From Treponema sp. (lineage in GTDB: Bacteria; Spirochaetota; Spirochaetia; Treponematales; Breznakiellaceae), in the NCBI GenBank assembly GCA_031279635.1, contig JAITIC010000094.1, positions 1 through 35,228 of the forward strand: 35,228 bases of DNA, written 5' to 3'. Below the pieces are notes generated by a model, which was not told where the DNA came from, did no database searches, and was given only the letters and a program-made list of their open reading frames with translations. Of this stretch, positions 5,592 to 11,341 are shown in pieces (position 1 is the stretch's first letter; every line of letters starts with the position of its first letter). The position numbers and the translations under genes are program-made.

Positions 5592-8500
5592 TTACTTTGC
5601 GGCGGGCTTCTTTACCGCGGTTTTTTTCGCCGCCGGTTTCTTGGCAGCGGCACTCTTAGCCGCGGTTTTTTTCACGGCAGGTTTTTTTGCCGCGGCAGTT
5701 TTCACGGCGGTTTTTTTCGCCGCCGGTTTTTTGGCAGCGGTACTCTTAGCCGCCGGTTTTTTTACCGCAGGCTTTTTTGCGGCGGCAGTTTTTGCGGCGG
5801 TTTTTTTCGCCGCCGGTTTTTGGGCAACGGCACTCTTAGCCGCCGGTTTTTTTACCGCCGGTTTTTTTGCGCTTGTTGCTGCTGCCATTCTTTTGTCGCT
5901 TCTTACAGGTTTTTTACCGTCTTTCACCTTGACAGCAGCGGGTTTATCGGCTTTTGCCGACTCTTTTCCCTTTATAATCTTTCCGGAATTATTTATAACC
6001 GCCTGTGCGCCGGCAAGTCGCGCCAGTGGTACCCGGAATGGTGAACATGATACATAGCTTAATCCCGCCCTATAACAAAAGTCAATCGTCGCGGGATCTC
6101 CGCCGTGCTCTCCGCATATTCCAATCTTGAGATCCGGTTTAACCTCTCTCCCCGCGCTTATGCCGAAGCGCATCAAGCCCCCGACGCCGTCCTCGTCAAT
6201 TGAATTGAAAGGATCCACATCAAGCACATTTTTCTGCAGATACACCGGAAGGAACGAAGCGATGTCGTCACGGCTGAAGGCGAAAGTCATCTGCGTAAGA
6301 TCGTTGGTGCCGAAGCTGAAGAAGTCCGCATATTTGGCAATGTGGCCGGCGCGTATCGCGGCGCGGGGCACTTCGATCATCGTACCGATCTTCACATCCA
6401 TTTTAATGCCCGCGGCATCGAAAACTTTTGCAATTATTTTTTCGGCGTTGGGCCGCAGGAGCTTTAACTCCCGCGCGGTAACGACAATGGGGATCATGAT
6501 CTCAGGCTGCACGAGGATATTTGCCAAAACACATTCAACTGCGGCTAGGGCGATTGCCTCCACCTGCATATCGTAGATCTCGGGATATGTTACCGCAAGG
6601 CGGCAGCCGCGGTGCCCCAGCATGGGGTTGGCTTCAACAAGCCGGTCGATCTTGGGCTGTAGCGCATCGTGACTCACATTGAGATGGGCGGCAAGCTCGT
6701 CCACTTCTTCTTTCGTGTGGGGAACGAATTCGTGAAGCGGCGGGTCAAGGAGCCTGATGGTAACGGGCCGTCCTTCCATTGCCTTGAATATGCCGAAGAA
6801 ATCTTTCTGCTGGAGGGGCAGTATCTCCTGCAGATGCTTTTCCCGCTCTTCTTTGGTGTCGGCGACGATCATGGCCCGGAAATGGATCAGTTTCTCTTTG
6901 TCAAAGAACATGTGTTCGGTACGGCAGAGGCCCACGCCCTGCGCGCCGAAATCAAAAGCCCGTATGGCGTCTTCCGGCTGATCCGCGTTGGTTCTTACAT
7001 CAAAGCCTTTGATGGGGCCCCGCACGGCGCGGGCGCGTACCTGGTCGCACCACTTGAGGAATATGTTCATGTCTTTGGAGATGTTCGGAATCACCAAAGG
7101 CAGGCGGCCCTCATACACCTCGCCGGTCGAACCGTCAATGGTGAGCCACTCCCCTTCCTGGTAGGTCTTGCCGCCGATAACGGCGGTGTTGTGCTGCACT
7201 GAAACGCCTTTCGCGCCGGCCACGCAGGGGGTTCCCATGCCGCGGGCAACTACTGCCGCGTGGCTGGTCATGCCGCCGGTGGAGGTAAGCACGCCCTGGG
7301 AAACCACCATGCCGCCAATGTCCTCCGGGCTGGTGTCTTTGCGCACCAGCAGCACTTTTTCACCCCTTTCGTGCCATGTTTCGGCGTCTTTGGCGGTAAA
7401 AACGATGCGCCCCGCGGCGGCGCCGGGGGAGGCGTTAAGACCTTCGGTAATGGGTTTTGCTTCCTTGTTGGCCGCCGGATCGATCATCGGGTGGAGCAGC
7501 TGATCCAAATGCGCCGGCGTTACCCGCATAATCGCGGTCTCTTTATCGATCAAGCCCTCGGCAACCATGTCCACCGCGCACTTTATCGCGGCGGTTCCCG
7601 CCCGCTTGCCGTTGCGGGTCTGGAGCAGGAAAAGTTCACCCTGCTGTACGGTGAATTCCATATCCTGCATATCTTTGAAATGTTTTTCCAGCTTGTTTTT
7701 GATGCCCACGAGTTGTTTGTAAATAACCGGATTCCGTTTCGCCAGCGTGGCGATCTTTTCAGGCGTCCTGATACCGGCCACCACGTCCTCACCCTGGGCG
7801 TTCATCAGGTATTCACCGTAAAACTCGTTGATGCCGGTGGAGGGGTCGCGGCTGAAGCACACGCCTGTGCCGGAGTCTTCGCCGAAATTGCCGAACACCA
7901 TAGACTGCACATTCACCGCGGTCCCTTTGAGATTGCGGATGCCGTTGAGCTGCCGGTATTTGATGGCCCGCTCGTTCATCCACGAGCCGAAAACAGCGTT
8001 GACCGCGCCCCAAAGCTGATCCAGCGGGTTCTGGGGAAAGTCCCTGCCGGTGCTTTTCTTAATGATTTTTTTGTATTCGTCAACGAGAGCCTCAAGGTCT
8101 TTGGCGTTAAGCTGTGTGTCAAGCTCGACATTTTTCGATTTTTTAATGCCGCTGATGGCTCCCTCAAACAGCTCGTGTTCCACGCCCATGACCACGTCGC
8201 CGTACATCTGGACGAAACGCCGGTACGCATCCCAGGCGAAACGGGGATTGCCGGTTCTAAGGGAAAGGCCCTGCACTGCCTTGTCGTTCATTCCCAGGTT
8301 GAGAATCGTGTCCATCATGCCGGGCATGGAAACCGCCGCGCCGGAACGAACCGAAACCAGCAGGGGATCGTCGGGATCGCCGAGCTTTTTCCCCATTATC
8401 TTTTCAAGTCTTTTGAGGTTTGCCTCTACTTCCCCTTTAACGCCCGCAGGATATTTTTGCTTGTTCTCATAATATGCGGCGCAGACCACGGTAGAGATCG

Positions 8501-8639
8501 TAAAGCCCGGCGGAACCGGAATCCCCATGTTGGTCATCTCCGCGAGGTTGGCGCCTTTGCCGCCCAGCACATCTTTCATCTTCGCGTCCCCTTCGGCCTT
8601 GCCTTCGCCGAAGAAGTACACTTCTTTTCGTTTAGCCAT
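5592..8639 (-). CDS. ppdK: Pyruvate,phosphate dikinase with histone H1-like Lys/Ala/Pro C-terminal tail
   Basis: The protein has 1015 residues, against about 880-900 for the usual enzyme. It interconverts pyruvate, ATP and phosphate with PEP, AMP and pyrophosphate, in the cytoplasm. Seen: N-terminal ATP-grasp (KMKDVLGGKGANLAEMT); the swivelling phosphohistidine domain with GGMTSHAAVVARGMGTPC, catalytic His460; and the C-terminal PEP/pyruvate TIM barrel with GICGEHGGDP, active-site Cys842. The core ends near AGAQAVI at about residue 882. It continues with 133 extra residues that become a lysine-rich, low-complexity array (units such as AKKPAVKKPAAKS), resembling eukaryotic H1 and bacterial H1-like tails. 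The ATG at 8639 follows GGAGG. glgP is divergent. The catalytic assignment is secure; the role of the tail is unknown. Confidence 0.97.
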   Translation of the reverse strand: MAKRKEVYFFGEGKAEGDAKMKDVLGGKGANLAEMTNMGIPVPPGFTISTVVCAAYYENKQKYPAGVKGEVEANLKRLEKIMGKKLGDPDDPLLVSVRSGAAVSMPGMMDTILNLGMNDKAVQGLSLRTGNPRFAWDAYRRFVQMYGDVVMGVEHELFEGAISGIKKSKNVELDTQLNAKDLEALVDEYKKIIKKSTGRDFPQNPLDQLWGAVNAVFGSWMNERAIKYRQLNGIRNLKGTAVNVQSMVFGNFGEDSGTGVCFSRDPSTGINEFYGEYLMNAQGEDVVAGIRTPEKIATLAKRNPVIYKQLVGIKNKLEKHFKDMQDMEFTVQQGELFLLQTRNGKRAGTAAIKCAVDMVAEGLIDKETAIMRVTPAHLDQLLHPMIDPAANKEAKPITEGLNASPGAAAGRIVFTAKDAETWHERGEKVLLVRKDTSPEDIGGMVVSQGVLTSTGGMTSHAAVVARGMGTPCVAGAKGVSVQHNTAVIGGKTYQEGEWLTIDGSTGEVYEGRLPLVIPNISKDMNIFLKWCDQVRARAVRGPIKGFDVRTNADQPEDAIRAFDFGAQGVGLCRTEHMFFDKEKLIHFRAMIVADTKEEREKHLQEILPLQQKDFFGIFKAMEGRPVTIRLLDPPLHEFVPHTKEEVDELAAHLNVSHDALQPKIDRLVEANPMLGHRGCRLAVTYPEIYDMQVEAIALAAVECVLANILVQPEIMIPIVVTARELKLLRPNAEKIIAKVFDAAGIKMDVKIGTMIEVPRAAIRAGHIAKYADFFSFGTNDLTQMTFAFSRDDIASFLPVYLQKNVLDVDPFNSIDEDGVGGLMRFGISAGREVKPDLKIGICGEHGGDPATIDFCYRAGLSYVSCSPFRVPLARLAGAQAVINNSGKIIKGKESAKADKPAAVKVKDGKKPVRSDKRMAAATSAKKPAVKKPAAKSAVAQKPAAKKTAAKTAAAKKPAVKKPAAKSTAAKKPAAKKTAVKTAAAKKPAVKKTAAKSAAAKKPAAKKTAVKKPAAK
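5598..5870 (-). repeat. 90-bp tandem repeat encoding the PPDK tail (about 3 units)
   Basis: The tail falls into three consecutive 30-residue units, each beginning AKKPAVKK and containing AAKKTA near its end; the third is slightly short. The DNA repeats with the same 90-bp period and contains several 7-8 base T-runs on the plus strand. Such arrays change length readily by slippage or recombination. Confidence 0.85.
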
Positions 8640-8690: not shown

Positions 8691-8764
8691 GTACCCTGAG
8701 CGGTATCGCGCGGTTTATGACGATAAAGGAAAAACGGAAATTCCTGGGACAGGCTATTCATTCG

Positions 8765-8793
8765 TTGACACAAACCTTTTCAAAGCCTAAAAT
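8765..8793 (+). promoter_or_regulatory. Strong sigma70-like promoter for glgP, placing the start of transcription at the ATG
   Basis: TTGACA (8765-8770) is a perfect -35. A 17-base spacer and TAAAAT (8788-8793) follow. Only seven bases (CTATATT) separate the -10 from the ATG at 8801, so the transcript would begin at or next to the start codon. No ribosome-binding site is visible before 8801. The promoter lies inside the N-terminal extension of the ORF-track call (8717), which argues against that longer start. Confidence 0.7.
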
Positions 8794-8800
8794 CTATATT

Positions 8801-11341
8801 ATGAATATATCTACTTATACAGTAAAGCCGAAACTCCTCGCACCACTAAAGCCGCTGGAAGAGATTGCCCGCAATCTTTGGCTGTCGTGGAATTATGACG
8901 CAATTCAGCTTTTTATCAGGCTGGATTATGACGTATGGCTCCAGTCCCAGCAGAGTCCGGTACGGACCCTGGGTATGGTCAGCCAGGAGCGGCTTGCCCA
9001 GACGGCCAAAGACGATTCCTATCTTGCCGCGCTCAAAGAAGTATACGACCGGTTCCGGCGCTACAAAAAGGGTGAAACCTGGTACCGGGGCAGCCATAAG
9101 GATGTGGTGGCCTATTTCTCCATGGAATACGGCATGGACACTTCCCTTCCTATTTATTCAGGGGGCTTGGGCATCCTCTCCGGGGACCACATGAAAACAT
9201 CCTCGGATATGGGCCTGCCCCTGGTGGGGATCGGCTTTTTGTACCGGCAGGGATATTTCAAACAGATGTTGAACGCCGACGGCTACCAGCAGGAAAGCTA
9301 TCCGGAAAACGACTGGTACAATATGCCGGTGGAACGGAAAACCGGTAAAGACGGGCAGCCCGTCAAGATTACCGTGGATTTGGCAGGCCGCCAGGCTGTC
9401 GCCCAGATATGGGAAGTGAAGGTCGGCCGCTCTTCCCTGTACCTGCTGGATACCAATATCGAAGAGAACGCCCCGGATATCCGCAACATCACCGCGACCC
9501 TGTACGGCGGCGACAAGGAAACCCGGATACAGCAGGAAATTCTCCTGGGCATCGGCGGCATCCGCGCACTGCGGGCTTTGGGCATTAACCCCGCCGCCAC
9601 GCACATGAACGAAGGCCATGCGGCTTTTTTGGGCCTTGAACGGATCCGGGAAATCATGGTCGAACGGAATTTTACTTTTGAAGAGGCGAGAGAGGCGGTG
9701 TGGCCCACCAATATCTTTACCACCCACACCCCGGTTCCCGCGGGGAACGAGCGCTTTGACATTGCCCTGCTGGAAAAATATTTCCGCAACTGGCCTGAAG
9801 TGCTGGGCATTTCCTGGAGAGACTTTGTCGGCCTCGGCCGGATATATCCGGGCGACGAGCATGAAACGTTCTGCATGACCGTACTGGCCCTGAAACTTGC
9901 GGCCTATGCAAACGGCGTGGCGAAACTCCACGGCGTGGTTTCCCGTGAGATGTGGAAGGGCCTGTGGCCCGGCCTCCCCCTGGACGAGGTGCCCATCGCC
10001 CATGTGACCAACGGCGTCCATTCCCGCACCTGGGTTTCCAGCGGCATGATAGAGCTTTTGGACCGCTATTTCGGCCCGCATTTTGAAAACAAACCCACGG
10101 ATTTGGCGATCTGGGAACGCATGGAGCGGATATCCGACGAAGAGTTGTGGCGTACCCACGAGCGCCGCAGGGAGCGCCTGGTGGCCTTTGTCCGCGACCG
10201 TATCCGCGATCAGTACAAGCGCATCGGCGCGGTGGAGCACCGTATCCGCCAGGTTGAGGATGCCCTCTCCCCCTACGCCCTGACGCTCTGCTTTGCCCGG
10301 CGTTTCGCCACCTACAAGCGGGGCAACCTGCTGTTGCGCGACCCCGAGCGGCTGCTGCGCCTGGTAAAAGACAACGACCGGCCGGTCCAGTTGATCTTCG
10401 CCGGCAAGGCCCATCCCCACGACATGCCCGGCAAAGAGCTGATCCGCGAGATCATCCACTTTGCCGAAAAGTACGATGTCACGAGCCGCATCGTTTTTGT
10501 CGAGAACTACGACATGACCGTCGCCAAGTACCTGACATCGGGCGGCGATGTGTGGCTCAACACCCCCAGGCGGCCCATGGAAGCCTCGGGTACCAGCGGC
10601 ATGAAAGCCGCCATGAACGGCGTGCTCAACTGCTCCATCATGGACGGCTGGTGGGACGAAGCCTATCAGCCCGAAATCGGCTGGGCCATCGGCCACGGCG
10701 AGCAGTACGAAGACGAAAGCCTACAGGACGATGTGGAAAGCAAGGCCCTGTACGACCTGCTTGAGCGGGACATTATCCCCATGTTCTATCAGCGGGGCCG
10801 CGACGGTCTGCCGAGAGAGTGGATCAGAAGGATGAAGGATTGTATGCGGATAATCGGCCAGTCCATGTCCTGCCACCGTATGCTGATGGACTACTCGAAC
10901 ATGTTCTACTTTCCCGCGCTCAAGAACTACCGCCGCCTGGTCAATGACGACTACGTTGAGGCGAAATCCCTGGCGGCTTATTTTGCCAAGCTGCGGCAGT
11001 CATGGGACAGCCTGAAAATCGTCAAGCTCGAATCCAATGCCAAGCCGGTGATGCAGCGGGGTGACAAGCTTACCGTCAGCGCCTACCTGGATATGGGCCA
11101 GATGCTGCCTGAAGAGCTGCAGGTGGAACTCTACCACGGTACGGTGTCGAATCAGAGCAATGAGATCACTAACGCCTGCCGGAAGGAGATGCGGTGGGTA
11201 AGTACCGAGAACGGCTTAAGCCTGTACGAGGTACGGATCGAGTGCGCCGATACCGGCCAGCAGGGCCACACGGTGCGGATTTTGCCCAAGCACAGCGCGC
11301 TGATCCATCCCTACCGTTCCGGTTTTATCAAGTGGGCCTGA
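8801..11341 (+). CDS. glgP: Glycogen/alpha-glucan phosphorylase
   Basis: The protein has 846 residues from ATG 8801 (MNISTYTVKPKLLAPLKPLEE). It is typical of the bacterial alpha-glucan phosphorylase branch that starts with a DUF3417-type N-terminal region (LEEIARNLWLSWN). It releases glucose-1-phosphate from alpha-1,4-glucans in the cytoplasm. Seen: VAYFSMEYG and LPIYSGGLGILSGDH near the N-terminus; TNIFTTHTPVPAGNE; and EASGTSGMKAAMNG, where Lys602 should bind pyridoxal phosphate. The start at 8717 in the track is less likely because the extension is not family-like and carries the promoter. With no Shine-Dalgarno before 8801 the mRNA may be leaderless. The gene is divergent from ppdK, so both may respond to carbon state; that link is inference. 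Confidence 0.95.
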   Translation: MNISTYTVKPKLLAPLKPLEEIARNLWLSWNYDAIQLFIRLDYDVWLQSQQSPVRTLGMVSQERLAQTAKDDSYLAALKEVYDRFRRYKKGETWYRGSHKDVVAYFSMEYGMDTSLPIYSGGLGILSGDHMKTSSDMGLPLVGIGFLYRQGYFKQMLNADGYQQESYPENDWYNMPVERKTGKDGQPVKITVDLAGRQAVAQIWEVKVGRSSLYLLDTNIEENAPDIRNITATLYGGDKETRIQQEILLGIGGIRALRALGINPAATHMNEGHAAFLGLERIREIMVERNFTFEEAREAVWPTNIFTTHTPVPAGNERFDIALLEKYFRNWPEVLGISWRDFVGLGRIYPGDEHETFCMTVLALKLAAYANGVAKLHGVVSREMWKGLWPGLPLDEVPIAHVTNGVHSRTWVSSGMIELLDRYFGPHFENKPTDLAIWERMERISDEELWRTHERRRERLVAFVRDRIRDQYKRIGAVEHRIRQVEDALSPYALTLCFARRFATYKRGNLLLRDPERLLRLVKDNDRPVQLIFAGKAHPHDMPGKELIREIIHFAEKYDVTSRIVFVENYDMTVAKYLTSGGDVWLNTPRRPMEASGTSGMKAAMNGVLNCSIMDGWWDEAYQPEIGWAIGHGEQYEDESLQDDVESKALYDLLERDIIPMFYQRGRDGLPREWIRRMKDCMRIIGQSMSCHRMLMDYSNMFYFPALKNYRRLVNDDYVEAKSLAAYFAKLRQSWDSLKIVKLESNAKPVMQRGDKLTVSAYLDMGQMLPEELQVELYHGTVSNQSNEITNACRKEMRWVSTENGLSLYEVRIECADTGQQGHTVRILPKHSALIHPYRSGFIKWA

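What the first reader, a model, noticed from the sequence alone, without database searches (positions are those of the whole stretch)
5592..8639. Pyruvate,phosphate dikinase carrying a histone H1-like Lys/Ala/Pro tail
The catalytic core is complete (His460, Cys842) and ends near residue 882. A further 133 residues follow, mostly AKKPA/AAKKTA repeats as in histone H1 and bacterial H1-like proteins. A strongly basic tail on a central metabolic enzyme is unusual. It could bind nucleic acid or polyphosphate, tether the enzyme to the nucleoid or to polyanionic storage bodies, or respond to lysine acetylation. The enzyme makes and uses pyrophosphate and AMP, which makes a polyanion link attractive but unproven.
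Basis: partly seen in the sequence, partly recalled or inferred. Interest (0 to 1): 0.8.

Follow-up and report, generated by a model that had tools for sequence, protein, structure and literature searches.

The report
Enzyme gene with nested histone-like protein
In a group of Treponema-type spirochaetes the gene for the metabolic enzyme pyruvate,phosphate dikinase ends in a histone-H1-like, probably DNA-binding tail, and in about 40 related species the join carries a conserved ribosome-binding site and start codon that should also make the tail as a separate small protein; in the species of this window that inner start looks switched off.

Summary
Window 5592-8639, minus strand, encodes a complete pyruvate,phosphate dikinase (PPDK; TIGR01828 1313 bits, His460, Cys842) plus a ~130-residue Lys/Ala/Pro tail (net +38; Pfam HC2, histone-H1-like, above cut-off). 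It is no artefact: the AAKKPA repeats differ only at third codon positions, and dozens of independent genomes carry such tails. Sister lineages have AT-hook tails (KKRGRPAK) instead, which points to DNA binding.

The new result is in the join. In one 40-sequence clade the ~100-nt linker carries a Shine-Dalgarno sequence and in-frame start that open the tail (34/40 in the clade, 1/66 tailed PPDKs outside). Duplex strength matches real starts, synonymous codons are frozen (0.81 identical vs 0.51 in the core; 0 of 689 core windows as high), and a hairpin with compensatory changes lies upstream. In one genome (G023) the same linker is the untranslated leader of a separate H1-like gene directly behind ppdK. 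So this is a dual gene: tailed enzyme plus free H1-like protein. The window's species has lost the inner Shine-Dalgarno and its ATG lies in a predicted stem; it probably makes only the tailed enzyme. DNA binding, free-protein production and regulation are inferred, untested.

The parts
5592..8639 (-). ppdK ORF, 1015 aa: PPDK core plus basic tail
5988..8639 (-). PPDK catalytic core, residues 1-884 (His460, Cys842)
   Evidence: TIGR01828 1313 bits; solved PPDKs align here
5877..5996 (-). Linker, homologous to the conserved leader of relatives
   Evidence: covariance model R1, 114 bits
5961..5973 (-). Degenerate copy of the conserved AAAGGGAGGGGAG box (here AAAGGGAAAAGAG)
   Evidence: alignment A1
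5917..5935 (-). Leader hairpin CTGTC-AAGGTGAAA-GACGG (relatives CTGCC/GGCAG); one compensatory U-A pair here
5897..5904 (-). Destroyed inner Shine-Dalgarno (AAGAAGCG; relatives AAAGGGGGA)
   Evidence: duplex -0.9 kcal/mol against about -10 in relatives
5886..5888 (-). Inner in-frame ATG (residue 918), homologous to the inner start of relatives; predicted closed in a 10-bp stem (5930-5939 with 5878-5887)
5592..5888 (-). H1-like Lys/Ala/Pro tail; nested ORF of 98 codons
   Evidence: PF07382 hit; codon-position differences 0,0,22 in AAKKPA repeats

Best explanation
A dual-product gene. (1) Read from its own start it makes PPDK with a long, presumably disordered, strongly basic C-terminal tail of H1/AlgP type, which most likely tethers the enzyme to the nucleoid or another polyanion. 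(2) In the lineage to which this gene belongs (about 40 species sampled), a conserved leader at the core-tail junction (GGGAGGGG box, hairpin, AAAGGGGGA Shine-Dalgarno, in-frame ATG or rarely GTG) lets ribosomes start inside the ORF and make the tail alone as a free H1-like protein. In the window's species the inner Shine-Dalgarno is destroyed and the ATG lies in a predicted stem, so here probably only the tailed enzyme is made. SHOWN by sequence: tail, its coding constraint, its spread, the constrained leader, the restriction of the inner start to one clade, and one genome where leader and tail form a separate gene. INFERRED: that the free protein is translated, that the tail binds DNA, and any regulation.
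For: Core and tail. Tail under protein selection: third-position-only differences in AAKKPA repeats. Tails in dozens of genomes, and AT-hook tails (PF02178 E 1.8e-13 and 4.2e-8) in sisters. Inner Shine-Dalgarno plus in-frame start in 34 of 40 clade members against 1 of 66 tailed PPDKs outside it; energies like native starts and at the 1st-2nd percentile of core Met codons; Gly of the motif GGG in 23/23 against 945/6476 in cores. Synonymous constraint 0.81 vs 0.51, 0 of 689 core windows as high. Hairpin paired in 95.7% of cells with double changes in 3 of 6 pairs. Separate H1-like gene behind the same leader in G023, with a net 2-nt loss that breaks the frame. KPAA domains of AlgP and PhaF bind or are thought to bind DNA and position granules (PMC9239181).
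Against: No expression, binding or localisation data. The window's own inner start is inactive by sequence (-0.9 kcal/mol). The separated form is known from one genome. No tail-less PPDK with an adjacent free H1-like gene was found, so the origin by fusion is not shown. Clade members are related, so counts are not independent events; the tree is a quick one with SH-aLRT support only. Lysine-rich tails could bind RNA or polyphosphate rather than DNA.
Confidence: 0.68

Rival explanations
1. Only the fused enzyme matters: the tail is a polyanion tether for PPDK, and the Shine-Dalgarno plus start in relatives is a relic of an old fusion between ppdK and a downstream H1-like gene.
For: The window and L010 keep the tail without a working inner start; tails without any inner start are the rule elsewhere in the phylum.
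Against: A relic would decay; instead the leader shows the strongest synonymous constraint of the stretch examined, compensatory changes, and the same AAAGGGGGA where the encoded residues differ.
Confidence: 0.15
2. The nested H1-like protein is the selected product and the fusion to PPDK is incidental read-through without effect on the enzyme.
For: Inner start conserved in 34 of 40; separate gene in G023.
Against: G023 kept a basic tail on PPDK as well as the separate gene; basic or AT-hook tails occur on many PPDKs with no inner start; the window keeps its tail with the inner start gone.
Confidence: 0.1
3. The tail is a neutral expansion of a GC-rich triplet repeat with no function.
For: Tail length varies from about 30 to over 400 residues, and 52 of 158 PPDKs in the tree have none.
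Against: Third-position-only differences in AAKKPA repeats, basic charge kept while the motif type changes to AT-hooks, constrained leader.
Confidence: 0.05
4. The tail serves polyphosphate or pyrophosphate handling, or lysine acetylation, rather than nucleic-acid tethering.
For: AlgP, with a like tail, associates with polyphosphate granules (PMC9239181); the genomes have PPi-dependent phosphofructokinase and mostly lack family I pyrophosphatase.
Against: AT-hook versions in sisters point to DNA; the window's genome has a DHHA2 protein, possibly a family II pyrophosphatase, so no PPi-sink necessity follows.
Confidence: 0.12

Closest known systems
AlgP and PhaF of Pseudomonas (KPAA-repeat C-terminal domains; PMC9239181)
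   Same: Disordered Lys/Pro/Ala repeat tail on an unrelated N-terminal part; tethering of that part to the nucleoid is the proposed role.
   Different: N-terminal part here is a complete metabolic enzyme; relatives carry an inner start. Common descent of the tails is not shown.
Histone H1-like HC2 family (PF07382)
   Same: Tail matches the profile over its cut-off; the G023 separate protein scores 48 bits.
   Different: Low-complexity match, so similarity of composition rather than proof of descent; here fused to PPDK.
Solved pyruvate,phosphate dikinases such as 1kbl, 1dik, 5jvj, 1vbg, 2x0s
   Same: Full-length core homology.
   Different: Their matches end at query residues 881-893; none carries such a tail.
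AT-hook proteins (PF02178)
   Same: Sister-lineage PPDK tails have four to five AT hooks.
   Different: The window's own tail has none.
Genes with in-frame internal start sites (such as Cas11b, PMC11899642; N-terminal proteoforms, PMC11005335)
   Same: Shine-Dalgarno and start inside an ORF predict a shorter product.
   Different: Here the inner product is an H1-like protein within a metabolic enzyme gene, with a conserved leader; production not yet shown. In the window the inner start is lost.

Membership tests
Pyruvate,phosphate dikinase (TIGR01828) | Full-length match over the equivalog cut-off | tested here: met
   1313.3 bits, cut-off 843.45, residues 5-882
Pyruvate,phosphate dikinase (TIGR01828) | Catalytic His and Cys in their motifs | tested here: met
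   GMTSH His460, CGEHGG Cys842
Pyruvate,phosphate dikinase (TIGR01828) | Enzyme activity | not testable with these tools
   no assay
Histone H1-like HC2 (PF07382) | Profile score over the curated cut-off | tested here: met
   43.4 bits in the protein, 55.7 in the genome search; cut-off 40; low-complexity match
Histone H1-like HC2 (PF07382) | DNA binding or compaction | not testable with these tools
   no assay; composition and charge only
AlgP/PhaF-type KPAA-tailed tether | Long C-terminal Lys/Pro/Ala repeat tail | tested here: met
AlgP/PhaF-type KPAA-tailed tether | Granule-associated (phasin-like or AlgP) N-terminal domain | tested here: not met
   N-terminal part is PPDK
AT-hook protein (PF02178) | GRP-type hooks | tested here: not met
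   no AT_hook hit in the window's protein; present in sisters L115 and L204
Gene with internal in-frame start | Shine-Dalgarno plus in-frame start inside the ORF, in relatives | tested here: met
   34 of 40 clade members; constraint
Gene with internal in-frame start | Working Shine-Dalgarno in the window's own gene | tested here: not met
   AAGAAGCG, -0.9 kcal/mol; ATG in predicted stem
Gene with internal in-frame start | Shorter product observed | not testable with these tools
   no proteome or ribosome data at hand
Known structured RNA leader (Rfam) | Match at the gathering score | tested here: not met
   eight loci scanned including L001 and L173; best hits far below gathering scores

The most novel reading that the evidence does not exclude
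The leader is a translational switch: its CTGCC arm pairs either with the nearby GGCAG (start open) or with TGGCAGT over the AUG (start closed), so that some signal sets the ratio of nucleoid-tethered PPDK to free H1-like protein and ties energy and pyrophosphate metabolism to chromosome packing through one gene.
Probability: 0.2. Interest if true: 0.9.

Novelty: new variant of a known kind. Interest (0 to 1): 0.74.

Why it matters
H1-like Lys/Ala/Pro tails on bacterial proteins and in-frame internal starts are each known. A central metabolic enzyme whose gene also holds a nested, separately startable histone-like protein, behind a leader conserved at nucleotide level inside coding sequence, was not found in the library searched. 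If true it links carbon and pyrophosphate metabolism to the nucleoid both physically and genetically, and nature supplies the contrasts needed to test it: fused with inner start, fused without, separated, AT-hook version, no tail. It also means that annotation as one long PPDK hides a likely second protein in about 40 genomes.

Tried and rejected
Assembly artefact: rejected; many independent records share the tail. Chance Shine-Dalgarno from Lys/Gly codons: rejected by GGG 23/23, core Met controls and synonymous constraint. Ancestral unfused state (short PPDK followed by a separate H1-like gene): looked for among the short-tail loci, none; only G023, which has its own PPDK tail. Leader elsewhere in the genomes: model R1 finds it at the ppdK 3' end wherever it could be placed; a weak hit in G448 and a contig-end fragment in G006 could not be placed. 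Known RNA family: none. GTG 'starts' in L010/L038 and L094: judged false (Val codon in repeat context, or weak). Pyrophosphate-sink necessity: weakened by a DHHA2 protein in the genome. Start-covering helix: 94.7% paired but weak covariation, and leader fold z-scores are modest (-1.0, -1.8, -2.7) except in the window's own (-4.8), so a switch is kept only as the novel case. Literature searches found no precedent for a PPDK-H1 fusion. No structure prediction was run; disorder of the tail is inferred from composition.

Full report
WHAT WAS CHECKED. The ORF lies on the minus strand, 8639 to 5592, 1015 codons. It is a full-length PPDK: TIGR01828 1313 bits against a cut-off of 843 over residues 5-882, three Pfam PEP-utiliser domains, His460 and Cys842 in their motifs. 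Solved PPDKs align to the core only. What follows is a Lys/Ala/Pro tail: from residue 888 net +38 and pI 11, where the core has net -5 and pI 6.4. Pfam HC2, the histone H1-like profile, matches it above its cut-off. The four AAKKPA repeats differ at 0, 0 and 22 first, second and third codon positions, so the amino-acid sequence is selected. The window lies in a 3.1-Mb, 276-contig draft genome; close named relatives are recorded as Treponema sp. MAGs and some Spirochaetia records. That they come from termite guts is my inference.

HOW WIDESPREAD. The relatives of the same genus whose gene is intact at the 3' end all have such a tail. Tails of other sequence but like charge occur in other genera of the family, other families of the order, and one more distant family of the phylum (L224-L226), while many other PPDKs end within about ten residues of the core. 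On a tree of 158 PPDK cores the fewest changes between tail and no tail number 8. Several sister lineages have AT-hook repeats instead (KKRGRPAK; PF02178 E 1.8e-13 with five hooks in L115, 4.2e-8 with four in L204). Two unlike sequence types that share basic charge and a link with DNA binding, in the same place on the same enzyme, favour a nucleic-acid-binding role. This is inference, not an assay.

THE JUNCTION. In most close relatives the residues between core and tail run NNSGKNIKGGESAKTGKPATAKVKGSKKPVKGDKK-MAVTS-AKKPAAKK or alike. At DNA level the Met is preceded by CTGTAAAGGGGGACAAGAAG or alike: a Shine-Dalgarno sequence before an in-frame start. Anti-Shine-Dalgarno duplex energies are about -10 kcal/mol, like the native PPDK starts (median -9.5) and unlike Met codons inside the cores (median -3.2; 1st percentile -10.4). 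The Gly of the motif is GGG in 23 of 23 genes against 945 of 6476 core glycines. Over 25 fused genes, codons for the same residue are identical in 0.81 of comparisons in the linker and 0.51 in the core; none of 689 core windows of 15 codons reaches any linker window. At the same time the fused rows change length in threes and stay open, so the linker is read as protein too. The sequences are related, so counts are not independent events, but the within-gene control shares the same relatedness.

THE LEADER. The alignment shows a GGGAGGGG box, a variable hairpin, then CTGCC-AAGGTGAAA-GGCAG, then AAAGGGGGA and ATG. The CTGCC/GGCAG helix is paired in 95.7% of cells, with changes on both sides in 3 of 6 pairs; sliding the partners destroys this. 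The same arm can also pair with TGGCAGT at the start codon (94.7% of cells, weak covariation), which would close the start; this is only a possibility. No Rfam family fits. A covariance model finds the leader in 30 of 60 relatives and 40 of 200 family genomes, as a rule once per genome, and at the ppdK 3' end wherever it could be placed; two related genera (g150, g158) have it too, fused, with AAAGGGGGA kept although the residues encoded around it change.

A NATURAL SEPARATION. In G023 (L173; L032 and L093 hold the same sequence) ppdK has an ~81-residue Lys/Ala/Pro tail of its own and a stop codon. About 50 nt later the homologous leader begins, now untranslated and with a net 2-nt loss against its relatives, followed by ATG and a 139-codon H1-like ORF. 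On the core tree this gene sits inside the fused clade, so separation is most simply derived from the fused state. The lineage has both a basic tail on the enzyme and the separate H1-like ORF, which suggests that both products matter. It is one genome.

PHYLOGENY OF THE INNER START. Of the 40 clade members, 34 have Shine-Dalgarno plus start (ATG, or GTG in L013) by a fixed criterion; of 66 tailed PPDKs outside the clade, one does. L030 has the motif but falls just short (-8.4), L032 is the separated case, and L001, L010, L033 and L051 lack it. Part of the clade (L046, L049, L050, L070, L077, L079, L086) uses AAGGAGGC or AAGGGAGG before ATG instead.

THE WINDOW'S OWN GENE. It keeps the linker (114 bits) and the ATG at 5886-5888, but the Shine-Dalgarno reads AAGAAGCG (-0.9 kcal/mol), and GCTGCTGTCA is predicted to pair with TGGCAGCAGC over the start (z -4.8). 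Its sister L010 has lost most of the leader. So in this small lineage the free protein is probably no longer made while the enzyme's tail is retained; this is the best argument that the tail serves the enzyme itself.

MECHANISM, STEPS MARKED. Shown: tail, constraint, spread, leader, start signals, separated form. Inferred from established biology: a polycationic tail binds DNA or other polyanions, as reported for the KPAA tails of AlgP and PhaF (PMC9239181). Inferred: PPDK is held near the nucleoid; the free H1-like protein acts as a nucleoid protein in leader-bearing species. Speculative: that nearness to sites of pyrophosphate and AMP release is the benefit. The genomes are PPi-oriented (PPi-dependent phosphofructokinase; no family I pyrophosphatase in 39 of 40; membrane pyrophosphatase in 29 of 40 but not found in the window's own draft genome), but the window's genome has a DHHA2 protein, so no necessity follows.

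COMPARISON WITH THE KNOWN. It is a PPDK by every feature testable here. Its tail resembles HC2, AlgP and PhaF in composition, without evidence of common descent. In-frame internal starts are a known kind (PMC11005335 and PMC11899642, found). The combination of enzyme, H1-like tail and constrained inner leader was not found in the paper library searched. I therefore file it as a new variant of known kinds.

Noticed in passing
L174, L181, L184, L185, L188, L189, L191, L193 (relatives); own-genome counterpart in L002 (G000:C22): A protein with an N-terminal MATIKKPAAKK-type H1-like stretch and a ~160-residue domain (NVKFRNLFDAFAQGKLPF...) without a Pfam match lies within about 3 kb of the second, more distant PPDK-like gene in about a dozen genomes of the genus; in the window's own genome the counterpart lacks the basic stretch.
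   Followed up: partly
G000:C256, locus L125: An M20-family hydrolase in the window's genome ends in a ~35-residue Lys/Ala/Pro tail, next to a carbamoyltransferase-like ORF: a second metabolic enzyme with such a tail.
   Followed up: partly
L110, L112, L100: PPDK tails of up to 418 residues made of KRGRGRPP repeats separated by acidic/Pro-rich spacers, that is multi-AT-hook tails of low net charge.
   Followed up: no
L170 (G012:C58): A ~195-codon stand-alone H1-like ORF (MEKKPAAKKPAVKK...) away from ppdK in a genome whose ppdK also has tail and inner start.
   Followed up: no
L175 (G009:C143): A large protein of unknown kind that ends in a mixed-charge EEKPAVKK/DKKPAVKK repeat tail, unlike the purely basic ones.
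   Followed up: no
window 8717-11341: A glycogen/alpha-glucan phosphorylase-like ORF (by eye, not searched) runs divergently from ppdK with about 80 bases between the starts.
   Followed up: no
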